The translations under genes and the position numbers were made by a program. A stretch of DNA of 64,000 nt from positions 1 through 64,000 of the forward strand of contig JAFLBE010000020.1 in the NCBI GenBank assembly GCA_017303995.1, given 5' to 3'. The notes under the pieces are model-generated. The model had not been told where the DNA came from and searched no databases. It saw only the letters and a program-made list of their open reading frames with translations. This stretch comes from Bacteroidota bacterium (GTDB lineage Bacteria; Bacteroidota; JABWAT01). Shown here one piece after another: positions 15,194 through 52,134 of this stretch. Position 1 is the stretch's first letter. Every line of letters begins with the position of its first letter.

Positions 15194-17215
15194 TTATTTC
15201 ACAAGTTGAACTGGAATGACTTTCATGCCAAAATTAGTTTCCAGGCGAATAAAGTAAGTTCCGGATGGCAATCCGGCAGCGTCGAAAGTGAGTTCATGGT
15301 TTCCTGCTGGGAAAACCTGACTTGCGAGTTTTTTTACCGGCTGACCCAACATATTAAAAACTGTAAGAACTGTCTGTCCTGCCTCAGGCAAACTGAATGA
15401 AACTTGAGTTGAAGGATTAAACGGATTTGGATAAGCCGGATTCAGTTTAAACTTTTCAGGCTGAGTTTTGTCGTCAACAGAAATGGGGGTCACCAACTGA
15501 AATTCCAAATAATTCAGATTGTACCCGGCGGTTGGAATTTCAATTTTCAAAACCTGAGATCCTGCCTGAAGAGTAATATCTGGAAACACAATGCTTTTCC
15601 AGGCTTGCCATCCACCTGTATTTGGTATTGTTTTGGTCGATAAGAGTGAGGATGAACCTGTATAAAGTGATATCGTTCCTACTGATCCGCCTGATGCATG
15701 CCTGATCACAAGATTGTAAACTCCTGCAGTTTTTACGTTAACCGTATATTTCAGCCATTCCCCATTATTTGTCCAACCGACATCATAACCGTTGGTATTT
15801 GCGGTGGCATCCGCACATTTTTCGATGTCAACACCATCATTCCGATATGTCCACCCTGCATTCCATGTTCCACCACCAGCACCTCCCGTATTCTGATAAT
15901 CCTTATCAAAATAAGCTTGATTCTGGTTTCCCATATCATAATCGACTGCATAAATCCGACCAGGAATTTCATGATTTTTGTATGGATACAACCCAGGTTT
16001 AAAAATTTGATTAAACATCGAGTTTATCACATCCAGATTTGGCCGGCAATTTGCGAGTTTTAAATTTTCAGCTTGATTATAAAGTGCAGTCATTGCAACC
16101 GATACGCTCGGTTTTGATCCGGTTCCCGACCAATACTTTAATAGCAAATCGAACCCAGGATCTTTTTTAACACTCCAGATACTTTGAGCGCCTTCTATTT
16201 TTTTGATCGTCCACCATGACCAGCCAATTTTGGCAACCTCAAGAGTCCGGATCATACTAGTGAACCAAGGATTCGAATTCTCACCCGATTCACCACACCA
16301 TAACGGAACTTGCTCTTGGTTACGAAGGGTAAGTAAATACTGAATCGAAGAAGAGCTTGTCTCGGCCCAATACCGGTGAAATGAATAAACCATATTGTCA
16401 TCCCACTTTGGAGTTAGACCTTTAAAGTCGGTGGCAAACCAGTTTCCTTCAATAAACAGAATGTGATTCTGATCGACTTCCCTGATTGAATTGGTGATAT
16501 TGATAAACAACTCCCTGAGTAAAGCATTTGTTGAACCAAGATCCCAGGCCGGTTCGTTGATCAGGTCGTAGCCACCAACAGTTGTTTCATCTTTGTACCT
16601 CTCAGCAATTTTCCGCCAGATTTCTACTGTTCGGATACGGAAAGATTCATCCTGCCACAACCGGGCCTGACCGTCACTGTCGCTGATCGGTTCACCACTT
16701 TGGGCACCGGGTGCACAATGCATATCAAGGATTACATACATGCCGTTTGTTTTGCACCAGGCAATGACCGAATCAAATTGGGCAAATCCGGGTTCAAGCC
16801 AAACGCCAGGTTGATCTGGCGGAGTCAATTTATCCCAATGAAAAACAAGGCGGACTGAATTAAATCCGAATTCTTTCAACTGGTCAATATCAGCTTTTGT
16901 GACAAAATTTTCTTCGTATTTCTGATAGAATAGTTTACGGTTTTCAGTGCCAACAAGTGCTTCAATTTTATTTCTGATCTGGGTTGGAGAATTTGCAAAT
17001 GCAGAAGTACCAAGCATGTATCCTTCAGGAACCAGCCAGCCACCGAGTCCCATTCCACGAAGCAAAACTTCACCGTTATCGTTAATGATTTTAGTGCCCT
17101 GGGTCCGGAGGAATCCCTGAGCGGAAACCACGGATGTGGAAAAAAGAATAATCAAAAGAATGGGTAATATTTCCCCGGTTCGATGTTTTAATAATTTCAT
17201 AGTAAACTTACTCAT
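15194..17215 (-). CDS. GH5 hydrolase with CBM6 and T9SS sorting domain
   Basis: 673 aa. Signal peptide ends at VVSAQ (residue ~33). The GH5 barrel (~35-410) opens LRGMGLGGWLVPEGYM, with acid/base Glu221 in DLINEPAWD and nucleophile Glu309 in CGESGENS. A CBM6 follows (~440-590: RNDGVDIEKCAD, then NNGEWLKYTV and GGWQAWKS). A type A sorting domain follows (YPNPFNPSTQVSFSLP, ending PVQLVK), so it is exported by T9SS and displayed on the cell surface. It is a paralogue of the GH5 at 11307. Its ATG overlaps the stop of the upstream GH3 remnant by 4 bp (ATGA), so translation was coupled to that gene. ATG 17200 is an alternative start. Confidence 0.9.
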   Translation of the reverse strand: MSKFTMKLLKHRTGEILPILLIILFSTSVVSAQGFLRTQGTKIINDNGEVLLRGMGLGGWLVPEGYMLGTSAFANSPTQIRNKIEALVGTENRKLFYQKYEENFVTKADIDQLKEFGFNSVRLVFHWDKLTPPDQPGVWLEPGFAQFDSVIAWCKTNGMYVILDMHCAPGAQSGEPISDSDGQARLWQDESFRIRTVEIWRKIAERYKDETTVGGYDLINEPAWDLGSTNALLRELFINITNSIREVDQNHILFIEGNWFATDFKGLTPKWDDNMVYSFHRYWAETSSSSIQYLLTLRNQEQVPLWCGESGENSNPWFTSMIRTLEVAKIGWSWWTIKKIEGAQSIWSVKKDPGFDLLLKYWSGTGSKPSVSVAMTALYNQAENLKLANCRPNLDVINSMFNQIFKPGLYPYKNHEIPGRIYAVDYDMGNQNQAYFDKDYQNTGGAGGGTWNAGWTYRNDGVDIEKCADATANTNGYDVGWTNNGEWLKYTVNVKTAGVYNLVIRHASGGSVGTISLYTGSSSLLSTKTIPNTGGWQAWKSIVFPDITLQAGSQVLKIEIPTAGYNLNYLEFQLVTPISVDDKTQPEKFKLNPAYPNPFNPSTQVSFSLPEAGQTVLTVFNMLGQPVKKLASQVFPAGNHELTFDAAGLPSGTYFIRLETNFGMKVIPVQLVK

Positions 17216-19661
17216 AATGTTAATGTTGCTTTCGAATGGATATTTCTGGATGAAGAACCTGTCAAGACTTCATAATTCCCTGGAGAAAGAACCCATGAAG
17301 CGGTTTTTTCATCATACCAGGAAAATGATCGTGAATTCAGTTCAATTGAAACTGTTTTGGTTTCACCGGGCATCAATGTGATTTTTGAGAACCCTTTTAA
17401 TTCTTTTTCAGGACGGTCGACTGGTGGATTAACAGGTTTCACATATAGCTGAACCACTTCAGATCCTTTACGTTTTCCTGTATTTGTCACTTCGAGCGTA
17501 ACCCGGTATTTGTTATTTCCAAGCGATTCGACTCTCGATTCTGAAAAACTGAAAGTGGTATAGGAAAGACCAAAACCAAAAGGAAACAGTGGTGTTTTTG
17601 CTTTGGTATCAAACCAGCGATAACCGACATAAATACCTTCTTCGTAACTCACACTACCTGTTCCGGGAAAATTTTCGTAAGCATTGCAATCTTCTCAGGA
17701 TTTAGGAAAAGTTGTTGTTAGCCTTCCTGAAGGATTATGATTTCCAAACAGAATATCGGTTATCGGGTGACCGGCATCCTGCCCAGGAAACCAACTTTCG
17801 AGAAGAACAGGAACTTCATCAATCCAGTCAGACATGAGAACAGCAGCACCCGAATTCAGAACAACGATCGTTTTTGGATTTATTTTTGCAACTTCCTTGA
17901 TCAGATTCACCTGATCTGCAGGTAAATTGAGATCCTTCCGGTCAAAACCTTCAGATTCAACATTGTAAGAACTTCCCACAAAAATCACTGCAATTTCAGA
18001 TTCTTTTGCAGCCTTCACAGCATCCGTAAGAAAATCAGAGCCAGGTAAAACCCAGCCCAATTTCAGAACTGCACCGCCACCATTTTCATAAAACTCAACT
18101 TTTACCGTGACTGTTTTCCCTGCTTCAAATTTATATTTTGCCGACCGGGTTTCGGGACCATGGTCCGACCAATAATCAGTTTGTCGTCAATCCAGACCCG
18201 AATACCATCATCGCTCAGACCATCAAGTTGATAGTCTCCGGAAACTTCCGGAACAAGTTCCCCGGTTAATCTTACCGAATAATTGTCTTTCCCGATTTCT
18301 GGTGCCGGAATAGCATCACCCCAATCAAAGTTGATTTGCGATTCTGCCCGTGATAGTGCCGGAGTTCCTTCCAACTTCTGGTTATTGAAATAATCAGCTT
18401 TCAGGTTTTTAAAATATTTTGCTTCTATGGGTTTTACATCCCCCGGGATAGTGGCACCCGGAGCATAAGTTACCTTGAATTTCCCAGTACCCACTTCATT
18501 AAAAGCATCGAGAGGACTTACAGAATAAAATGGAAGCACCATTGAACTTCCACCACCACCGGTTCTGGCAGATGCTGCATTGGGGCCAATAACGGCAACT
18601 GATTTGAGTTTGTTGATATCAAGCGGAAGTAAGCTCTTATCATTTTTAAGCAGAACGATAGATTCTGTTGCAGCCTGACGTGCAAGTTCCTGATGTTCTT
18701 TTGTATTCAGAGCTGTTGGTAATGAACCCGGAACCCGGTCAAACAGACCAGAAATCATCATCACTCTGATCAGGCGTGCAATTTTGTCATCAACAACAGA
18801 AACTGGTAATTTTCCTGAATCAACGAAGGGTTTCAGGTTTTTCACATTCATAAATTCCCCGGTCGGCATTTCGAGGTCAGTACCGCCAAGGGCAACATCA
18901 AGGTCACCATGAACAGCACCCCAATCAGAAACCACAAATCCGCGGAATCCCCATTCATTTTTCAACACTTCATTCAACAAATGATTGTTTGCTGTTGCGT
19001 AAGGTCCGTTTAGCCGGTTGTAGGACGCCATAATCGTCCAGGTGTCAGCTTCTTTGACGATTGTTTCAAACGCCGGCCAATAAATTTCACGCATGGCACG
19101 TTCTGAAACTTTCACATCAATTGTCATCCGCTCATGTTCCTGATTGTTCACCGCAAAGTGTTTCGTTGAAGTAAGAACACCCATCTGTTGAACGCCTTTA
19201 ACCCATGCCACACCGAGGCGGCCAGAGAGGAATGGATCTTCACCGTACGACTCAAAATTACGTCCGCCATGAGGAACCCGGTGAATATTGATGCAAGGAC
19301 CTAACAACATATCACGTTCTTTTGCGAGAGTTTCAAGCCCCATCGCCTGACCAACTTTTCTTGTAAGAACTGTATCCCAGGTTGCACCCATTGAAATGCC
19401 GGATGGAAATGCAGTTGCCTGTCCCCATCGAACACCAAGAGGTCCGTCTGTCATTCGAATAGCAGGAATGCCAAGCCGGATAACCGGTTTGCTATCAAAA
19501 CCAGTTCCGCCAAGGAGATCAAGTTTTTCTTCAATTGTGAGCCGGGAAACCAAATCCTTTATCCGTTCTTCAACAGGAAGATTTTTATTCTGGAACGGAA
19601 GGGTTTGTGCTGAAAGCAGAAAAGAAGTAATCAGGGTAAAAAACAGGAGTTTGAATTTCAT
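17212..19661 (-). pseudogene. GH3 beta-glucosidase with PA14 domain, broken by a frameshift and a nonsense codon
   Basis: Joined, the parts give a full exported GH3: signal peptide (to SAQ), barrel with nucleophile SDWGAVHGD, PA14 domain inserted in the second domain (DYFNNQKLEG to WSDHGPETRS), completion of domain 2 (DILFGNHNPSGRLTTTFP) and a fibronectin-III-like end. Two lesions break it. At about 18168-18175 the frame shifts by the equivalent of one lost base: LIIGRT... is read where the other frame gives WSDHGPETRSAKYKFEAG. At 17695-17697 a TGA stands where the family has Trp (PKS-stop-EDCNAYENFPGTG), in frame with the rest. TGA ends other genes here, so read-through is unlikely. Base-calling error at one site is possible, less so at both. 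Confidence 0.85.
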
Positions 19662-20011: not shown

Positions 20012-21592
20012 TTATTGGGATACTGCTGTCATGTTCACAACCTGCTTCCCTTTTTTAATCTGGAAAGTCTGAGGTTTAAATTGAAGGGAATTCTGTTCGT
20101 TCAGAAAAACAATTAATTCAAAGTTGGCATCAGTTTCTATTGAAATCTGAGTTCCGGAATTGATATCTTTTCTTTTTTGTGCGATAAGGGAGGCTGTTAT
20201 TGATCCGAAATTCAGTTTTTTTATTCCATGCTCATCAATGCGGTTCATGTACCAAACCAGTTTTTTATTTGCACCATCAGGACGAAAACCCAGAATATTC
20301 TCAATTAAAAGCTGAACGGGACCACATCCGCTCCAACCAACAAAATCTGGTTTTGACCAAAAGGCTCTGCTAACAGATTCAGAGGAATAGGTTTCCCAGA
20401 TCGTGCCTGTTTTCCTGTAAACCTCAACTAAGTTATCGAGATACCGTTCTGAAGCCAAAACGCCAAATTCAGTAGTATTATAGAGGCCTGCGTAACGGTC
20501 AAGACCTTTTATGATCATGACATTAGTCGGCGCCCAAACTCCACCCTGCCAGTACATTCCGTCACCACGAAAGTTTTCTTCATCTGCTGCAAGAGAAGGA
20601 AAAACATTTGTCCGCCAGAACGTATGCGGGTTTTTCAGATTATCCATGAGCTTTTGAACCTGAGACGGAGAACACAAACCAGCGATCATCGGCCAGAAAC
20701 AAGCTGCCGTTTTATGTTTGATCTGATGCCCATCATTATCGATGTCGTAATAAAGTCCGTCCTGCTCATTCCACATCCATTTGTTGATAGCAGCACCAAT
20801 ATCTTCCGCCCTTTTCCGATGAGAAACAGCCTCAGTTGACTTTCCAATCGCATCTGCGACAATAGCCAGACTGTTGTAAGCCAGAACCATTTGAGCAGAC
20901 ATATCCACCCAACCCGATCCGCCCCGTGGCGTATTATCCATACCCGAACCCAGGCCGGTATTCCAATACAAATGATGGAAAGACAGATCAGCTTTTCTGT
21001 TTTTTTCGAGCCATTCAAGGTTTTTGACCAGAGCCGGATACACGTTTTTAAACCGGGAATTATCACCTGATATTTTCCATGATTCGACTTCCGCCCATGC
21101 AAACAAAGGCGGATTTACAGCATGCTGAGGACCTTCAAACCAGAATTCCATGCCATCTTTTTCCTGAATCTCACGGTGAATAAACCCGTCATCCCATTGG
21201 CGGCAGTAAAAATTATCAAGGGATTGAATAGCCGGGAAAATAGAATGGGCGTAACGGGCAAATTCGATCATGAAAAAGGTATCCCACTGAAAAACAGCAG
21301 GAGAAAATGCTTCATCAATAAAATCTGAAACAAAGGGAGAACCTGCAGGAGGCTTTTTGAAGTGGGTAAAGGCAAGTTCCCAGGATTTCCAATATAATTC
21401 AACGTATCCCGGGTTATCAGTTAAAACAGGTTCAGGTAATTTTGATTTTGATTCAGCAAAAGCCGGAATCAGAGAATTTGTATATTTTTTCTTCGGAAAA
21501 TGGTTTCCACGACCACCCTGATAGGTCATATCCTGACTGAAAGCCATTACAGAAATGGACAATCCAGTCAAGATAAATACCCATTTTTTCAT
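20012..21592 (-). CDS. Trehalase-like (alpha/alpha)6-barrel glycoside hydrolase (GH37/GH63 type)
   Basis: 526 aa with a signal peptide (residues 1-19, SVMAFSQ), so exported. The barrel shows VFQWDTFFM near residue 110, GGSGWVDMSAQM near 220, WPMIAGLCS near 300, GMYWQGGVWAPTN near 350 and IWETYSSES near 395. This is the pattern of trehalase-family and GH63-type exo-glycosidases, inverting enzymes with acidic catalysts in such loops. I cannot name the substrate: a glucoside or mannoside is likely, and true trehalase is only one option. It starts inside the stop of the TonB-like gene (ATGA overlap), so the two are coupled. Confidence 0.75.
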   Translation of the reverse strand: MKKWVFILTGLSISVMAFSQDMTYQGGRGNHFPKKKYTNSLIPAFAESKSKLPEPVLTDNPGYVELYWKSWELAFTHFKKPPAGSPFVSDFIDEAFSPAVFQWDTFFMIEFARYAHSIFPAIQSLDNFYCRQWDDGFIHREIQEKDGMEFWFEGPQHAVNPPLFAWAEVESWKISGDNSRFKNVYPALVKNLEWLEKNRKADLSFHHLYWNTGLGSGMDNTPRGGSGWVDMSAQMVLAYNSLAIVADAIGKSTEAVSHRKRAEDIGAAINKWMWNEQDGLYYDIDNDGHQIKHKTAACFWPMIAGLCSPSQVQKLMDNLKNPHTFWRTNVFPSLAADEENFRGDGMYWQGGVWAPTNVMIIKGLDRYAGLYNTTEFGVLASERYLDNLVEVYRKTGTIWETYSSESVSRAFWSKPDFVGWSGCGPVQLLIENILGFRPDGANKKLVWYMNRIDEHGIKKLNFGSITASLIAQKRKDINSGTQISIETDANFELIVFLNEQNSLQFKPQTFQIKKGKQVVNMTAVSQ

Positions 21593-22449
21593 TTTCCGAT
21601 CCGGAATGCGACAGGAATAGTCAATATTGAAGCAACTGCATTACCAGCAATTTTTCCGGGTATAAACTTAGTATTATAGACCGCATCCTGGGCAGCAATA
21701 TCAAGCATCGGGATTGATTTTTGAACCTGAAGAATCTTCACTTCACCCTGCTCATTGATCCATGCTTTCAGATAAACGGTTCCCTGTATATTCATTTTAA
21801 AAGCATCCTGTGGGTAAACCACATTTTTCATCACAGCCTTCCAGCCTTCAATTGGCATTGACTGTTCTTCAACAGCTTCAAAGAACTCAAACTCTGTATT
21901 GTCTGTAATCTCTTCAGAGGGATATACAACAAAATCTTCAGTGTCTACCACAGGGGTTTGCAGATCTATTGTTTTATTTTGTTGTATGGGTAACGGTTCA
22001 GATTTGGTATTAGATGCCAATTGAACAGGAAGTTTGCCAGAGTCAGGGATGGATAATTCAGTCTCTTTTTTAACAATTACGCTTTGTTCAGAGACAGGAG
22101 AAGAAACCGGCTTTGAATCAGAATTAACCGGTTTAACAGAAATATCAATTTTTGTTGTAAAATTTGCATTTACCCTGATCTTCCGGGAAAAGGGTAAATA
22201 TCCATTTCTTTGAATTTTAAGGGAGTATTCACCCGGGTTTAGAGCAACAAAACTAAAATTTCCACTCTGATTGGTTCTTGAAGACATGGTCTGAATGTCA
22301 CCGTCATAAAGCAGCACAATTACCAACGGAACTGTTTTTCCGTTTATCTGATCGAAAACACGACCGCTGATTTTACCGTTTTGGTTTTGTGCGAGACAAA
22401 CACTGAAATAAAGGAATCCGTTTATCAGAATTGTGAAGAGTGCCTTCAT
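21589..22449 (-). CDS. TonB-like protein with a carboxypeptidase-regulatory domain
   Basis: 286 aa. After a hydrophobic N-terminus (ILINGFLYFSVCLAQ) comes a CarboxypepD_reg-type beta-sandwich (residues ~24-110: GKISGRVFDQINGKTVPLVIV, then NQSGNFSFVALNPGEYSLKI). A Ser/Pro-rich linker (~112-180) follows, then a TonB C-terminal domain (~195-286: VVYPQDAFKMNIQGTVYLKAW, then FIPGKIAGNAV). TonB energises outer-membrane receptors. This N-terminus looks cleavable, which would leave the protein unanchored; if not cleaved it is the usual single membrane anchor. A good ribosome site (GGGGAG) precedes the ATG. It may serve the receptor encoded at 49498-52134. Confidence 0.75.
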   Translation of the reverse strand: MKALFTILINGFLYFSVCLAQNQNGKISGRVFDQINGKTVPLVIVLLYDGDIQTMSSRTNQSGNFSFVALNPGEYSLKIQRNGYLPFSRKIRVNANFTTKIDISVKPVNSDSKPVSSPVSEQSVIVKKETELSIPDSGKLPVQLASNTKSEPLPIQQNKTIDLQTPVVDTEDFVVYPSEEITDNTEFEFFEAVEEQSMPIEGWKAVMKNVVYPQDAFKMNIQGTVYLKAWINEQGEVKILQVQKSIPMLDIAAQDAVYNTKFIPGKIAGNAVASILTIPVAFRIGK

Positions 22450-22614
22450 TTTATTCTCCCCGAAAAGACTTATTAACTTTTATACGACAATGCAAAGATT
22501 TAACAAAAAAGGATCTACTTTGACAAATACTTTTTTAAATTAATATGCAAAAAGCTTGCCATAAAAATCAGGGTCCCCTTTCAAAAAAGAACCCATTAAA
22601 AAATATAAGTCAAA

Positions 22615-46068: not shown

Positions 46069-49000
46069 TTACTTGATCAGGGCAAATTTGCCGATTTGTT
46101 CACCAACACCTGGTGCATCAACGTGATAGATATATAACCCATAAGCCACATCAATACCATCTTCACTTAGCAAATTCCAGGTAAGGGCACCAGTGGCCAG
46201 TGACTCAGATTTATACAGGGTTTTAACCAAAGCTCCTGAGAGCGAATAAATTCTAACCGTGCAAGTGCTTGGCAGGTTGATAAAATCAATTTTTCTTTCA
46301 CCCCGTCCTGTAACATTATATTGAGCAGGTTCCCAGGAGGCAGTAGAGATGTAAGGGTTAGGAACGACCCGAATTGAATTCATTTGTTTTTTTGCTGCCG
46401 CCTTGTTGAGCGATTCTGCCTTGGTTGTGAAAGTGAATGAATCGCCTTTCACAAACTTTTTCTCAACACGAATTCTGAATTTATCACCTGCCCTTGGCCT
46501 GGTTTTCGATCCATCACTGGGCAAACCATATTGAAGCATCACCGGCCATCTTTCAGAAGTTTCATCTGCTTCTACCGAGGTTGCCTTTTCAACAATAATA
46601 ATTTTGGTAGTTCCGTCAGGAATAAGATTTACAGAATCTCTGTATGCAGTTGGCAGCCAGATATTAAAATCAACATATTTTCCGCTGGTGATATTTTTTA
46701 TTTTAAAATTCACCGGTCGTTTCTGGAAGAAGTGATCAGTTTTATTTTCCTCTTTGAATGATGTGTCCACCATTGAGTCAAAGAATTCAATCTCATAATC
46801 TCCACCAAAATATTTGTAATAAGGGTTCGGTGTTGACTTTCCTTTAATATAATAATAGTAAAGCGGTCCGAACGAAACGGGCGGTACTGGTGTCTGATAG
46901 GGTTGAAGCGTAGGCAGTTTCGATGCATCGCCTGAAACCCATGTTGATTGTTCTTCAAGAACGGCCGTTTTTCGGGAATTCTTTAATTGAACAGACACGC
47001 CGTCAAAAACATCCGTGGCCTTTTCATTGATATCTGTCCCGATTTGATCAGACTTTATCGTTGTCAGCGTATCAGTATCATTTCTGATGACAATGGCACC
47101 TGACGTTTCATAGAACGGAAAGGTACCTGTTGTATCAAATACGACCGTGTATTTTACATCATCCCTTATTTTCCCAGGATCTACTGCAATAATATCCATT
47201 GTACCTGTGCCCTGATCGGGTTTGGCATCCAACGTAAAGGAAGCAGGGATATAACCCAACGAGGGTGCGTTAGGGGTAACAATTGCACAGTTCTGGTCAA
47301 CAAAGGTGATGACGCCCGAGTTTGCCCTTTTTATGGTCTTCGGGCTTTCAGTAGGTTGGATTCTGAATGCGGCAGTGTCAGAAGAAACCCCCTGATCATA
47401 AGAAACCAACGCGTAATAATAGGTGACTCCATTCGTTACATCTTCATCGATGTAGGCGTGACTCAAGCCGGTTTCATCTCCCCGGTAGTAGGATGCTCCA
47501 AGAATACCAACTGGGTCAGGCCCTTCGATGCCATCAACAATATCCCATTTTGCAATTGGCTTATAATATTGGCCAACGCCTTTTGAATTGGTAATCGTTT
47601 TAACATCGGCGAATTCTGGTTCGGTGCTTCTGTAAAGGGCATACCCTTCAAAGTCTTTTTTAGGTCCGTTGGCCGGGTTGTTGCCTTCATAACCAAGTAT
47701 CGGGTCTCTCGATTCTTCAGCCCTTCGATCCCAGCTCAGAAACACTTTTTTATCTCCTGCACGTGCTGTCAAAATTGGTGTAAGCGGCGGTTTGGTAAAA
47801 TTGTAACCGGCATTATAAATAATCTGAACCGTCTTCTTATTGAAGACAAGATCTTCCCTGTCTTCTCCGAATAAGAGAGCCATTGAGAAACGTTCACGTC
47901 CATATCCATCCGTATTGATGGCACCTCTGAGAAGAAATGGTCCAGACCCAAACAAAATCTGAATATTCTTTCTTTGAATAGAAGTATCAAATTTAGCAGA
48001 CTTCATCCGATCCCAAATGACCTCATCATTCCGTGGCCAGATATCCCGTACAGTTTTTCCTGTAAGTTCCTCGATGACTACAGAAGTAAGACCGATCTGG
48101 TCAGATTCATCTTTATCAAGCTTACCGTAGTTTGGTTCACCTTGATTCGGACGTCCATTTCCTTCACCGTTATCGGGCACGTGGGTTTTAAATGCTTTCG
48201 AGACCGAATCCCAGGGTTCATCGAATGCACCCACACCATCTTCTCCCACATCATCAAGAAGAGGTTCAGCACTAAAGGTTTCGGAACCTGGTGCAGAATA
48301 AATTGTCCATGCTCCGTCACTGTTCAAGTCAAGAAAGGGTTGCCAGTCAGCATCTTCATCTGCCTTGAAATGAGTTTTTCCATTGGTGACGGTTGTTTCG
48401 GTTGCTTCGTCCGGATCGTCACGTCTTTCATCTACAAATCCATCTTCGTCATTGTCTCTTCCATCATTTGAATTTCCTGGTGATTCCAGATAAGCGTATC
48501 CATATACACCAAGAACAACATCGGTCCGACCCGGAATCTGATTATCAAAATCATAACCCCAGGTTAGGTCAAGCTCAGAATCATACCCGGCATTATCATC
48601 TCCGTTATCTGTATCTCCACCTAATCCGGTATCAGTATAGAACCCAAAGAAAGTTGAATCGTAGTCATGATCTCCCAGATTTGAAATATCATAATGCCAG
48701 AAAATAATATCTTCAGCAAGGGGTTGTGACCATTGGAAGGCTCTGGTTTCAACACGAAGCCCAAGTCCTTTCCTGATTTCAGGGTTGTACCATTGGGTTC
48801 CGTTTGCATAATCATAGGTTCCGTCAGTTTTCTTCGGAGCATCCTGAATAATCGGAAAGAAAAAATTCGGAAATTTTGTCCACTCAGCATCCTTTGAGTC
48901 ATCCATGACAAAGAAGGTTTCAACATCAGCGTTAAAAATGCCACGACCAAAATACCCATACCAGTTTCCATTATAAGTTGATGGAAGATTTAAGGCTGCA

Positions 49001-49482
49001 GGCCAGACATCCGGCCAGCTTGTGCGCTCAATGCTTGAAGCAGGAAGGGTCGTCTGTATATTTGAATAGCCAGGAACCGGATTCCAACCCCAGGCCTCAT
49101 TGACAAGATTAGCTGGAACAGTTGTTGTAATATCCATTTCTTCCCTGTAAAAGGTTTCAACCGGATACATGTACCGTTCTCTGTCTGTACGAAGCGACTT
49201 GGCTCTGGCGGTAACAATCATACAAATGCCATCCACATAGTCAATACCACTTCCCTTTGGCCATTCACCTGAAGGCGAAAACGGCCATTGCGCAATTTCA
49301 CCCGTGTTGTAGAACAGGGTTTTAACCAGGTTTCCGTCCATTATACCCTCCTTACGGTGGATGTAACTTCCCATCTGGTCATTGCGGTACCGGGCCGCTT
49401 CCGGGTCGACAGCTTGCGAAAAAACTGCTTCAGTCTGGAAAGTAGTCAGAATGAAGACTATTATATAAATATATTTTAACAT
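46069..49482 (-). CDS. Large secreted protein of unknown function with T9SS-type C-terminus
   Basis: 1137 aa. Signal peptide to VFSQA. The N-terminal ~330 residues contain many Trp, Asp and Tyr residues and Asp/Asn-rich loops (DTGLGGDTDNGDDNAGYDSE, DGRDNDEDGFVDERRDDPDE) that look like calcium sites. A fibronectin-III-like module with PILTARAGDKKVFLSWDRRAEE is near residue 570. The C-terminus (VVPNPYISTASWEP, then GLYIYHVDAPG, ending KFALIK) is an FlgD-like sorting domain. I do not recognise the family. Its place directly behind the TonB-dependent receptor and before the PorV-like gene, 15 and 13 bp apart, suggests a shared surface complex. Confidence 0.75.
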   Translation of the reverse strand: MLKYIYIIVFILTTFQTEAVFSQAVDPEAARYRNDQMGSYIHRKEGIMDGNLVKTLFYNTGEIAQWPFSPSGEWPKGSGIDYVDGICMIVTARAKSLRTDRERYMYPVETFYREEMDITTTVPANLVNEAWGWNPVPGYSNIQTTLPASSIERTSWPDVWPAALNLPSTYNGNWYGYFGRGIFNADVETFFVMDDSKDAEWTKFPNFFFPIIQDAPKKTDGTYDYANGTQWYNPEIRKGLGLRVETRAFQWSQPLAEDIIFWHYDISNLGDHDYDSTFFGFYTDTGLGGDTDNGDDNAGYDSELDLTWGYDFDNQIPGRTDVVLGVYGYAYLESPGNSNDGRDNDEDGFVDERRDDPDEATETTVTNGKTHFKADEDADWQPFLDLNSDGAWTIYSAPGSETFSAEPLLDDVGEDGVGAFDEPWDSVSKAFKTHVPDNGEGNGRPNQGEPNYGKLDKDESDQIGLTSVVIEELTGKTVRDIWPRNDEVIWDRMKSAKFDTSIQRKNIQILFGSGPFLLRGAINTDGYGRERFSMALLFGEDREDLVFNKKTVQIIYNAGYNFTKPPLTPILTARAGDKKVFLSWDRRAEESRDPILGYEGNNPANGPKKDFEGYALYRSTEPEFADVKTITNSKGVGQYYKPIAKWDIVDGIEGPDPVGILGASYYRGDETGLSHAYIDEDVTNGVTYYYALVSYDQGVSSDTAAFRIQPTESPKTIKRANSGVITFVDQNCAIVTPNAPSLGYIPASFTLDAKPDQGTGTMDIIAVDPGKIRDDVKYTVVFDTTGTFPFYETSGAIVIRNDTDTLTTIKSDQIGTDINEKATDVFDGVSVQLKNSRKTAVLEEQSTWVSGDASKLPTLQPYQTPVPPVSFGPLYYYYIKGKSTPNPYYKYFGGDYEIEFFDSMVDTSFKEENKTDHFFQKRPVNFKIKNITSGKYVDFNIWLPTAYRDSVNLIPDGTTKIIIVEKATSVEADETSERWPVMLQYGLPSDGSKTRPRAGDKFRIRVEKKFVKGDSFTFTTKAESLNKAAAKKQMNSIRVVPNPYISTASWEPAQYNVTGRGERKIDFINLPSTCTVRIYSLSGALVKTLYKSESLATGALTWNLLSEDGIDVAYGLYIYHVDAPGVGEQIGKFALIK

Positions 49483-49497
49483 GTGTTTACTCCACGC

Positions 49498-52134
49498 TTA
49501 CAAGGAAAAATTCAAGCCAAGTTTAATGGTTCTGGGTCCGGAATACCGGGTTGGATCATTGATATAATCCTTAATAGTGTTATAGCCTGCAACAGTATAA
49601 TCGGTTGCTATTTGCCTATTTGCTTCAATATCTTCAGTCGCACGGCCTGTTGAAGCAAAAACTCCATATTCATTTTTGATATTAAACACATTGTACACAA
49701 GGGCAAATAAATTGACCCGATATCCCGAAATTTCGATTCCTTTATCATATCTGAAGTCGAAAGAATAGGTTGAAGGTTTTGTACCTCCGTTTGATACCGT
49801 CATACCACCTGTATGGCGAACGTCTTCGGTATAAGGGTTGCCTGAGCCATAGCCAAAAATGAATGACAACATGCCAAATGTTTCATCATTAACTATTGCA
49901 GATAAATTAAAGGTATGCCTTTGATCCCAGTTAAGAGGAGTCACGTGTTTTTCGATAAATCGCGCATTATCGCGTGCCGCCTGAAATACCTGATCAGGGT
50001 TTGATGAGTTACCTTCTGCAATCTGATAAGTATAATCTGATTTCAGTTTCAGCATTTTTGCCAACCGGTAATTTAATGACACAATTAATCCCTTAACATT
50101 TCCATAATCACGGTTGATGTATCTTGAGTAATATAGGCCATCATAAGTTCTGAGAATTTCACCACCAATCAGGTTTCTGATGTCCCTGTAGTAAATAGTT
50201 GTTTCAAAACCCGCATCATCACTAATCATTTGCTGAAGTCCAAATTCATAGCTTGTGGTGCTCTCTGGTTTCAGATTTGCATTCCCGACCTGAGTATTGA
50301 CACCGTTTCCTCCGTTAATGTTGTACTCATGGTTCAAATAAGTCTGTTGAAAGGACGGTGGTTGAAAGAAGTGTCCGTAAGAGAAGTGCAATACGCCTCT
50401 GTCAGAAATTGGAAAAGAAACACCCAAACGCGGTGAGAGCTGCGATGATGGTTTCGAATCAACCCAACCACCTGGATACAATGGGTTTATTTGTGGATTA
50501 TTAAGATCAGCCGGCATTCTGGATCGTGGGTCAAAGAATTCATACCGAAGACCTGCATTGATAATCATCATGTCATATTCCATTTTGTCCTGCAGATAGA
50601 TAGCAAACTCCATCGGATTTTCATGATACTGCTGGTTTCCACCAAAATGAAGGGGCGCATAATTGATAACAAAAGCACTATCACTACTAGAACTAGCCTG
50701 AATGGACTTACCATGATCGAATAATTCATGAAACCTGACTTCAGCACCCATGCCCAGTTTATGTTTATCAGTTAACTGGGAAGTCAATTGCCATTTTATG
50801 AGATATGAATTGGTATATCTTTCATATCTTGAACCGTCATTACCACCATATCTAAAGGCATAACTTCCAAAAGAAGCCCCCACATTCGGATCAATATACC
50901 GGGAGTCATATTCATCCTCATATAAATACCCTTTATATCGGTGTATATTGGCTCCCAGTGAAAGTTCATGGAAGGTAGAACTTGTTGGAAAATGGGTAAT
51001 CTTCAGCGTATTAACATAATTTGTTCGGTAATGGGTCAGACGACCATCGGGAGAGTATGACCAGTCATGGCTGTAATATTGATTTTCATTGTCATCGTAA
51101 AACAAGCTATATGAGACCTTAAATGACTGCCCAGACCAGGTTATTTTCGGGCTCAATGACAGTTTTTTTGATGTCTGCATCGGCATCCACTTTTTATCAC
51201 CCGAATTGGCCCTGAAGCTTTTAATTGAATCGGTATCAGCAATATTATAAATTCTGCGGCCCCAGAAGTATCCCTGATCATCATAATATCTTCCGGTAAT
51301 AAAGAAAGAAACATCACTGATAAAGGGAATTGGGCCTGAAACTGTGGCTGAATAGTCTTTTGTAGCGACATTAAAAGGCTTGTCAAGATTTCTAAAAATC
51401 TTTGTGTCTGATGAATAATAATTACCCAATGTTACAGAGTAATTTGACTCATAATTTTCAAGAGAACCGTCTTGCGTAACAATGTTCACCATGCCAGACA
51501 TTGCACGGCCATATTCGGCATTAAAAGCACCTGAAATTACTTCAAGTTGTCTGATGGAAGCATTTTCAACCCCAACAGCAACTGAGTTATTATAAACGTC
51601 ATTTACTGGCACACCATCTACCAGGTACCCAACTTCATTGCTTCGACCGCCGCGGAAGTGGCCGTCAACAACACCAGCCTGCATATTGACAACCTGCGAC
51701 AGGTTTTCAACCGGCATTGCTTTGATATCTGAGGCGGTTACGGTTACAGACGTACTTGTAAGATCCTTCTGTACCAATGGAGCTTCTGCTTCCACCACGA
51801 TTTCTTCTGAAAGGATATCTTCGGTCTGCATTTTTATATCCTGACGCGTAGTCAGGTTAATTTTAACAACAACTTTTGATACAGTAACTCTCTGATAACC
51901 AATTGAGCTGATTACCAGTTTGTACTCACCGGGGGGTACATTATAAATTGAATATTTTCCATCCAGATCTGTTGCAGCTCCGTAATGGGTTCCGAGAACA
52001 ATAACATTGGCACCAATAACAGCATCTCCGGTTTTACTGTCGGTGACAACTCCGGTAATTTTCCCTGTATTTGAGGCATTGACCAAACCTGCCAGGGCAA
52101 AAATGCAGGTAAACAGCAATAGGATTTTTTTCAT
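49498..52134 (-). CDS. TonB-dependent outer-membrane receptor with CarboxypepD_reg domain
   Basis: 878 aa. Signal peptide, then a carboxypeptidase-regulatory-like domain (~22-105: GKITGVVTDSKTGDAVIGANV, then GVPPGEYKLVISSIGYQ-type), TonB-box region, plug (~115-230: NLSQVVNMQAGVV, GYLVDGVPVNDVY, EVISGAFNAEYGRAMSGMVN) and a 22-strand-type barrel ending TIKLGLNFSL. It would import oligosaccharides into the periplasm with TonB energy. It is shorter than SusC proteins (usually ~1000 aa), and no SusD gene is next to it. The gene before it encodes a CBM9-type binding protein, which may take the SusD role. Confidence 0.9.
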   Translation of the reverse strand: MKKILLLFTCIFALAGLVNASNTGKITGVVTDSKTGDAVIGANVIVLGTHYGAATDLDGKYSIYNVPPGEYKLVISSIGYQRVTVSKVVVKINLTTRQDIKMQTEDILSEEIVVEAEAPLVQKDLTSTSVTVTASDIKAMPVENLSQVVNMQAGVVDGHFRGGRSNEVGYLVDGVPVNDVYNNSVAVGVENASIRQLEVISGAFNAEYGRAMSGMVNIVTQDGSLENYESNYSVTLGNYYSSDTKIFRNLDKPFNVATKDYSATVSGPIPFISDVSFFITGRYYDDQGYFWGRRIYNIADTDSIKSFRANSGDKKWMPMQTSKKLSLSPKITWSGQSFKVSYSLFYDDNENQYYSHDWSYSPDGRLTHYRTNYVNTLKITHFPTSSTFHELSLGANIHRYKGYLYEDEYDSRYIDPNVGASFGSYAFRYGGNDGSRYERYTNSYLIKWQLTSQLTDKHKLGMGAEVRFHELFDHGKSIQASSSSDSAFVINYAPLHFGGNQQYHENPMEFAIYLQDKMEYDMMIINAGLRYEFFDPRSRMPADLNNPQINPLYPGGWVDSKPSSQLSPRLGVSFPISDRGVLHFSYGHFFQPPSFQQTYLNHEYNINGGNGVNTQVGNANLKPESTTSYEFGLQQMISDDAGFETTIYYRDIRNLIGGEILRTYDGLYYSRYINRDYGNVKGLIVSLNYRLAKMLKLKSDYTYQIAEGNSSNPDQVFQAARDNARFIEKHVTPLNWDQRHTFNLSAIVNDETFGMLSFIFGYGSGNPYTEDVRHTGGMTVSNGGTKPSTYSFDFRYDKGIEISGYRVNLFALVYNVFNIKNEYGVFASTGRATEDIEANRQIATDYTVAGYNTIKDYINDPTRYSGPRTIKLGLNFSL

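What the first reader, a model, noticed from the sequence alone, without database searches (positions are those of the whole stretch)
21589..22449. TonB domain fused to a CarboxypepD_reg domain, coupled to a hydrolase
CarboxypepD_reg domains normally sit on the receptor, not on TonB. The hydrophobic N-terminus ends in CLAQ and could be a cleavable signal. The gene overlaps the trehalase-like gene by 4 bp. A locus-specific, perhaps unanchored TonB would be unusual.
Basis: partly seen in the sequence, partly recalled or inferred. Interest (0 to 1): 0.5.

Follow-up and report, generated by a model that had tools for sequence, protein, structure and literature searches.

The report
Exported TonB-like protein lacking its anchor
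This gene encodes a relative of TonB, the protein that normally links the inner-membrane motor to outer-membrane nutrient gates, but its membrane anchor appears to have been replaced by a cleavable export signal and a small domain usually found on the gates themselves, which raises the question of how, or whether, it can pass on energy.

Summary
Window 21589-22449 (-) encodes 286 aa: an export signal ending CLA|Q, a CarboxypepD_reg (transthyretin-like) domain, an ~85-aa largely disordered linker and a TonB_C domain; its stop overlaps the next hydrolase's start as ATGA, also in two congeners. It is one of five such paralogs in its genome; both-domain matches were listed in 16 of 394 sampled Bacteroidota genomes (4 families, a lower bound). 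So it is neither a one-off nor, as sampled, phylum-wide. 47 of 58 members carry a signal-peptidase-like site followed by Gln (the Bacteroidetes Q-rule); the genome's own TonB-dependent receptors, which must be cleaved, show 14 of 21; by inspection no anchored TonB has it at its anchor. One paralog is the fourth gene of an ExbB-ExbD-ExbD operon in all four genomes of family f1; in 26 of 26 loci of other families the matching ExbD is followed by something else. Outside f1, members have a receptor within two genes in 9 of 37 loci (about 1.2 expected). The window gene sits in a glycan cluster with a receptor 27 kb away. Best reading: an exported, probably unanchored, TonB-like periplasmic partner of receptors; how force would reach it, if at all, is unknown. 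A new variant of a known kind.

The parts
21589..22449 (-). Exported CarboxypepD_reg-TonB_C protein gene (286 aa)
22390..22449 (-). Predicted Sec/SPI signal peptide, residues 1-20 (MKALFTILINGFLYFSVCLA|Q)
   Evidence: sequence; family count; receptor control; +1 Gln kept in both congeners
22129..22377 (-). CarboxypepD_reg / transthyretin-like domain, about residues 25-107
   Evidence: AlphaFold pLDDT about 88-95 per block of ten; VIA Z 13.8 to 5aq0_B and 11.5 to the SusC NTE 9hfj
21871..22128 (-). Linker, about residues 108-193; pLDDT under 50 over most of 112-185
   Evidence: family linker median 84 aa versus 89 aa in the anchored TonB set
21592..21870 (-). TonB_C domain with preceding segment, residues 194-286, YP motif at 212-213
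   Evidence: VIA Z 10.5 to the TonB chain of 6i97
21589..21592 (-). ATGA stop/start overlap with the downstream hydrolase
   Evidence: same in L105 and L106
20012..21592 (-). MGH1-like / trehalase / GH63-like glycoside hydrolase with an export-signal-like N-terminus
   Evidence: N-terminus ending AFSQ by inspection
22571..22594 (-). Terminator-like hairpin between the esterase gene and the TonB-like gene
   Evidence: 1 found, mean 0.2 in shuffles
49498..52134 (-). TonB-dependent receptor with a CarboxypepD_reg-type N-terminal extension in the same glycan cluster; candidate client (inference)

Best explanation
The gene encodes an exported, most likely unanchored, TonB-like periplasmic protein. 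Sec export and signal-peptidase-I cleavage before Gln21 release a two-domain protein: an N-terminal transthyretin-like domain of the kind found as the N-terminal extension of Bacteroidetes receptors, and a C-terminal TonB domain on a long flexible linker. The reg domain sits where the membrane anchor of TonB would be. The TonB_C domain most likely binds TonB boxes, here of the receptor encoded in the same glycan cluster. The reg domain most likely docks it to another part of the Ton machinery (ExbD, an anchored TonB, or receptor extensions). Shown by computation: both domains, Q-rule-like N-termini in most of the family, the ExbB-ExbD-ExbD operon of a paralog, receptor adjacency of other members, the ATGA overlap in three species. 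Inferred: cleavage in the cell, TonB-box binding, docking by the reg domain, and any role in transport.
For: Domains. Export: 47 of 58 family members have a small-x-small|Gln site after a hydrophobic core, and two more that the script missed show it by eye. The genome's own receptors, which must be cleaved, show 14 of 21. The anchored TonB set has a median of 27 residues before the hydrophobic core (n=39, range 22-78), whereas with the starts chosen for the family the core mostly follows a short stretch (by inspection), and it ends a median of 6 residues before the reg domain. A profile of the family matches residues 1-125, signal region included, of a solved TonB-linked receptor, 9gbc_A (E 1.4e-9). 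Ton link: a paralog follows ExbB-ExbD-ExbD in 4 of 4 genomes of f1; in 26 of 26 loci of other families the matching ExbD is followed by another gene; outside f1 a receptor lies within two genes in 9 of 37 loci. Reg-domain hits in frames of 899-905 aa lie 24-30 kb from the gene in all three congeners; in the window this is the receptor.
Against: No experiment, and no trained signal-peptide predictor was available. Nine of 58 members lack the Gln site; three of them (the C91 type) have no basic n-region and no convincing site. Within f1 only 1 of 17 members has a receptor within two genes, and the window gene has no ExbB, ExbD or receptor next to it. A soluble TonB cannot pull unless something anchors it, and no anchor for the reg domain was identified. 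AlphaFold hinted at contact between the two domains only in the window protein (pTM 0.63), not in the ExbBD-linked paralog (pTM 0.43). Other exported-looking TonB_C proteins exist in the phylum, so the domain may serve purposes other than energy transfer. In the TonB_C tree the window gene and its two orthologs fall, with weak support (77/64), on the side of the non-reg TonBs. Receptor adjacency counts include orthologs and are not independent.
Confidence: 0.5

Rival explanations
1. It is an ordinary inner-membrane TonB whose hydrophobic N-terminus is an uncleaved signal anchor; the reg domain is merely an extra periplasmic domain next to the membrane.
For: ExbB-ExbD-ExbD operon position of a paralog. 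E. coli TonB itself is inserted by an uncleaved signal-like segment (recalled). The C91-type trio lacks a clear cleavage site. A linker of TonB-like length is kept.
Against: 47 of 58 members show the Gln signature, at least the receptor frequency of 14 of 21; by inspection anchored TonBs do not show it at the anchor and carry a charged segment first. The reg domain starts a median of 6 residues after the hydrophobic core.
Confidence: 0.2
2. It is an exported binding or regulatory protein: the TonB_C fold is used as a peptide-binding module (decoy, receptor-state sensor or scaffold) and transmits no force.
For: Other exported-looking TonB_C proteins without anchors occur in the phylum. In L168 a member sits between a receptor, a YfiR-like protein and a histidine kinase; L177, L169 and L185 show parts of this by inspection. 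No anchor is present.
Against: The ExbB-ExbD-ExbD operon link in f1 is hard to explain without the motor. The YP motif and core TonB_C positions are kept.
Confidence: 0.25
3. It is a periplasmic accessory of the hydrolase (delivery, folding or docking factor), unrelated to transport.
For: ATGA overlap with the hydrolase in three species; another paralog (C78 type) is also next to a glycoside hydrolase in L101 (by inspection also near one in L112 and L113).
Against: In the neighbourhoods printed (the last one cut) I saw such neighbours only for the C41 and C78 types; this was inspection, not a count.
Confidence: 0.05

Closest known systems
TonB energy transducer (Pfam PF03544; NCBIfam TIGR01352)
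   Same: C-terminal domain over the curated cut-offs, YP motif, TonB-like linker length, fold match to TonB chains solved with receptors.
   Different: No cytoplasmic segment followed by a transmembrane anchor; instead an SPI-like signal and a reg domain.
N-terminal extension (NTE) of SusC-like receptors (PF13715/PF13620)
   Same: Same fold (9hfj, Z 11.5, rmsd 3.0), directly behind a signal peptide; a solved receptor aligns from residue 1 including the signal (9gbc_A).
   Different: Followed by a linker and TonB_C rather than a TonB box, plug and barrel. NTE function is described as unknown, perhaps TonB specificity (PMC7782687, passages).
Other exported-looking TonB_C proteins of Bacteroidota (short signal-TonB_C, lipoprotein-like TonB_C) and M56/BlaR1-type TonB_C proteins
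   Same: TonB_C without a TonB-type N-terminal anchor.
   Different: No reg domain found by the profile. In the tree they mostly lie outside the family's main group, but the M56/BlaR1 rows group with the ExbBD-linked members (82/92) and the window trio lies nearer the non-reg rows (77/64).
PorE (T9SS lipoprotein with CpoB, TolB, carboxypeptidase-like and Pal subdomains)
   Same: Periplasmic protein that joins an Ig-like carboxypeptidase domain to Tol/Pal-type parts (PMC12204202, passages).
   Different: None of the listed subdomains is TonB_C; described as an outer-membrane lipoprotein.

Membership tests
TonB energy transducer | C-terminal TonB_C domain | tested here: met
   57.4 bits vs 24.6 cut-off; fold Z 10.5 to 6i97_D
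TonB energy transducer | N-terminal transmembrane anchor that binds ExbBD (SHLS-type motif) | tested here: not met
   N-termini are signal-peptide-like, with Q-rule sites in 47 of 58 members; anchored TonBs look different. Sequence test only; the SHLS motif was not scored separately
TonB energy transducer | Long flexible periplasmic linker | tested here: met
   Low confidence at 112-185; family median 84 aa vs 89 aa in the anchored set; proline fraction lower, 0.091 vs 0.167
TonB energy transducer | ExbB/ExbD partner | tested here: inconclusive
   Operon with ExbB-ExbD-ExbD for a paralog, not for this gene
TonB energy transducer | Binds receptor TonB boxes | not testable with these tools
   Only single-chain structure prediction was available
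Signal peptidase I substrate following the Q-rule | Small residues at -3/-1 and Gln at +1 after a hydrophobic core | tested here: met
   CLA|Q here, CFG|Q and AFS|Q in congeners; rule described in PMC5837995 and PMC10653852 (passages)
Signal peptidase I substrate following the Q-rule | Cleavage and pyroglutamate in the cell | not testable with these tools
   Needs mass spectrometry
SusC-type receptor | Plug and beta-barrel after the reg domain | tested here: not met
   286 aa; no Plug or barrel hit in Pfam at E 0.1

The most novel reading that the evidence does not exclude
A split, non-covalently anchored Ton system: the exported protein is a relay whose reg domain is docked on ExbD or on an anchored TonB, while its TonB_C pulls the receptor. 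The reg-type extensions on receptors themselves would then be docking sites in the same network, giving the NTE, whose role is open, a general function.
Probability: 0.12. Interest if true: 0.85.

Novelty: new variant of a known kind. Interest (0 to 1): 0.52.

Why it matters
TonB is defined by a covalent link from the inner-membrane motor to the receptor. A conserved, paralog-rich family that keeps the receptor-binding end but appears to be released into the periplasm, with one member in a motor operon itself, either shows a second way to couple the motor or shows TonB domains used for something else. It also joins in one protein the two elements, NTE-type domain and TonB_C, whose relation on separate proteins is an open question, so it offers a direct test.

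Tried and rejected
Lipoprotein: rejected for this protein by inspection, since the residue before Cys18 is Val and no lipobox is seen; the neighbouring esterase does have one (ISGC). Wrong start codon hiding an anchor: judged unlikely for the window gene by inspection, since it and both orthologs start with short basic n-regions; not settled for the C91 type, where the 60 bases upstream hold in-frame stops in two of three. 'The fusion is chance or an assembly artefact': rejected, both-domain matches in 16 genomes. Docking of reg and TonB_C domains: suggested by pTM 0.63 for the window protein (my own inference from pTM, no PAE seen) but not repeated for the ExbBD-linked paralog (pTM 0.43), so not used. 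'In f1 an anchored TonB was replaced in a shared ExbBD operon': not supported. The f5/f26 operons with anchored TonB have ExbB/ExbD that look different by inspection; f5 genome G007 gave no match to the f1 ExbD, and G078 and G086 are not among the 55 of 118 genomes with a match. In the 26 loci of other families with the matching ExbD, the next gene is not a TonB-like gene. PHROGs gave one weak unknown match. The cleavage caller was too crude and was replaced by the one; one search also listed 80 f1-locus and window proteins with and 107 without a Gln site, a mixed set with cytosolic and membrane proteins that I did not use. Literature: no description of an exported reg-TonB_C fusion was seen in searches of the open library; subscription papers are not covered, and Pollet et al. 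2023 on the B. thetaiotaomicron TonBs was not read (known through PMC12204202).

Limits of counts: only about the best 6 candidates per genome were scored and the row list was cut, so 16 of 394 is a lower bound. The 58 members are distinct in their last 100 residues but include close orthologs; one partial duplicate (L073) was dropped from 59. Of the 58, 54 could be placed in context loci (17 in f1, 37 elsewhere). The '9 of 37' count uses a profile built from this genome's receptors and an assumed 23 receptors per 2,900 genes; one of the 9 (L183) is a fragment at a contig end, and four (L122, L123, L170, L174) look like one inherited arrangement. The anchored set of 39 was chosen by script and holds a few rows that are not clear anchored TonBs (L062, L066). 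One search resolved only 18 of the 30 ExbD loci (4 f1, 14 others); one search resolved all 30 (4 and 26). One search's output was cut in the middle.

Full report
What is there. The window is part of contig C41 of a 4.31-Mb genome (127 contigs, 98% complete) placed in the phylum Bacteroidota. The one named relative found is a metagenome-assembled 'Bacteroidetes bacterium isolate BAC1' contig carrying an 88% identical protein; its length of 234,390 bases equals that of G001:C15, so it is probably the same genome as G001. The gene at 21589-22449 (-) encodes 286 aa. Pfam finds CarboxypepD_reg at 27-105 and TonB_C at 209-284, both over the curated cut-offs. AlphaFold gives block-mean pLDDT of about 87-96 over both domains and under 50 over most of 112-185. 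[quoted passage not shown] the second matches TonB solved with FoxA (6i97_D, Z 10.5, rmsd 2.0, 88 aligned) and with TbpA (9dc4_T, Z 10.3, rmsd 2.2, 82 aligned).

The overlap. The stop codon and the next start share ATGA. The same four bases occur in both congeners, although one ortholog is only 51% identical. The downstream gene is a hydrolase of the MGH1-like/trehalase/GH63 group with an export-signal-like N-terminus. A terminator-like hairpin lies upstream of the TonB-like gene, so the two may form one transcript; this was not tested.

Not a single oddity. In the same genome the nine strongest TonB_C matches (E below 1e-14) lie in eight proteins: five with signal, reg domain and TonB_C (contigs C41, C37, C91, C78, C38), two ordinary anchored TonBs (C76), and one M56/BlaR1-like protein with two TonB_C domains (C83); three weaker matches were not followed. 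A profile of 24 full-length sequences (A1) was run against 394 genomes of the phylum: 389 had some match at 1e-10, and matches over both domains were listed in 16 genomes of four families (f1, f5, f26, f49). That is a lower bound, because about six candidates per genome were scored and the list was cut. So the fusion is neither locus-specific nor, as sampled, common across the phylum. In a tree of TonB_C domains the 58 family rows need only three label changes against a shuffled mean of 37.9; a single origin is neither shown nor excluded. The window gene and its two orthologs fall with weak support (77/64) on the side of the non-reg TonBs, and the M56/BlaR1 rows group with the ExbBD-linked members (82/92), so the family may not be one clade in this domain.

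Is the N-terminus cleaved? In Bacteroidetes most signal-peptidase-I substrates expose Gln at +1 (about 71% averaged over species; 77% in Ignavibacterium album; PMC5837995 and PMC10653852, passages). I searched for a hydrophobic core followed by small-x-small|Gln. It is present in 47 of 58 family members; two more (L143, L196) were missed by the core filter but show the site by eye. Nine lack it: four of the C38 type and two from f5, which by eye have other possible sites or are unclear, and three of the C91 type, which have no convincing site. As a positive control, 14 of 21 TonB-dependent receptors of the window's genome, which must be cleaved, have the site. In TonB_C proteins without a reg domain the script reports 7 of 54; by inspection five of these are other exported-looking TonB_C proteins and two (L046, L146) lie about 20 residues past the start of the core of an anchored TonB, so no anchored TonB has the site at its anchor. 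The anchored set carries a median of 27 residues before the core (n=39, chosen by script). In the reg family the hydrophobic core ends a median of 6 residues before the reg domain. A profile search of solved structures aligns positions 1-127 of the family profile with residues 1-125 of a TonB-linked receptor, 9gbc_A: the first half looks like the start of a receptor, signal included. I put cleavage and release at about 0.75; this is inference, because no trained predictor or experiment was available.

Ton connections. The genome has two ExbB and four ExbD matches, all on contig C37. One set, ExbB-ExbD-ExbD, is followed, 37-57 bases on with the starts I chose, by a member of this family in all four genomes of f1. 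The C37 protein has the same domains and a Gln site (SFG|Q). For the matching ExbD, 30 loci were fetched: in 4 of 4 f1 loci the next gene is the TonB-like gene, in 26 of 26 loci from other families it is another gene. The ExbB-ExbD-ExbD operons looked at in f5 and f26 hold ordinary anchored TonBs. Outside f1, a receptor lies within two genes in 9 of 37 loci, with about 1.2 expected under a simple assumption; in f1 it is 1 of 17. In L168 a receptor, a YfiR-like protein, the family member and a histidine kinase follow each other; L169, L177 and L185 show parts of this by inspection.

The window locus. On the same strand, from about 60 to 11 kb, lie GH5, GH3, GH5-CBM6, the GH63-like hydrolase, GH92, GH26, GH3, GH2 and GH16 enzymes, several with Por_Secre (T9SS) tails, an MFS transporter, and a receptor with a reg-type extension at 49498-52134. 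A reg-domain hit in a frame of 899-905 aa lies 24-30 kb from the gene in all three congeners, consistent with the same receptor; only the window's copy was identified by Pfam. This makes the receptor the best candidate client, by inference only.

How it may work. The family keeps the receptor-binding half of TonB, with YP and core positions, and a linker of TonB-like length (median 84 vs 89 aa), but has a reg domain in place of the anchor. NTEs of SusC receptors have this fold; deleting the NTE of Bt1763 left no detectable growth on levan after 24 h, and TonB specificity was suggested as a possible role (PMC7782687, passages). In Myxococcus the N-terminal part of the receptor Oar interacts with the TonB1 C-terminal domain (PMC6434023, passages). 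I therefore favour a periplasmic partner of receptors whose reg domain docks on the Ton machinery. The docking partner is unknown. A pTM of 0.63 hinted that the reg and TonB_C domains of the window protein touch, but the ExbBD-linked paralog gave 0.43, so this is not established.

Membership. It has the TonB domain but fails the anchor test at sequence level, so I do not file it as a TonB energy transducer; it may still work with one. No description of such a fusion was seen in searches. It is a new variant of a known kind, of moderate interest, which would be higher if release and motor dependence were both shown.

Noticed in passing
L104:2107-3804; L124:7520-9535; L126:7997-10354: M56/BlaR1-like proteins (by inspection) carrying two, three and four TonB_C matches in three related genomes, next to a BlaI-like regulator (by inspection).
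   Followed up: partly
L144, L149, L156, L057 (also L145): Other exported-looking TonB_C proteins in the phylum: short signal-TonB_C proteins of 122-137 aa, some beside lipoprotein-like TonB_C proteins.
   Followed up: partly
L058:1060-1878; L062:895-1836: Exported-looking proteins with MORN-like repeats (by inspection) ending in a TonB_C domain.
   Followed up: no
window 17212-19661: A GH3 enzyme is broken into pieces of 519, 121 and 146 aa here, while the congener has one 818-aa ORF (L105:4679-7135).
   Followed up: no
L100:9617-10390; L111:6277-7050; L114:9865-10635: C91-type members have a hydrophobic N-terminus with no basic residues and no convincing cleavage site; start or topology unclear.
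   Followed up: partly
L168:5586-11146; L169; L177; L185: Receptor, YfiR-like protein, exported TonB-like protein and histidine kinase in a row (complete in L168; parts in the others by inspection), suggesting a sensing role.
   Followed up: partly
L099:7130-8761; L119; L182; L188; L194: An S41 (CtpA-like) protease gene is next to or near family members; identified by Pfam in L099 only, by inspection elsewhere.
   Followed up: no
window 46069-49482: A 1137-aa protein with an export-signal-like N-terminus next to the receptor has no Pfam match at 1e-5.
   Followed up: no
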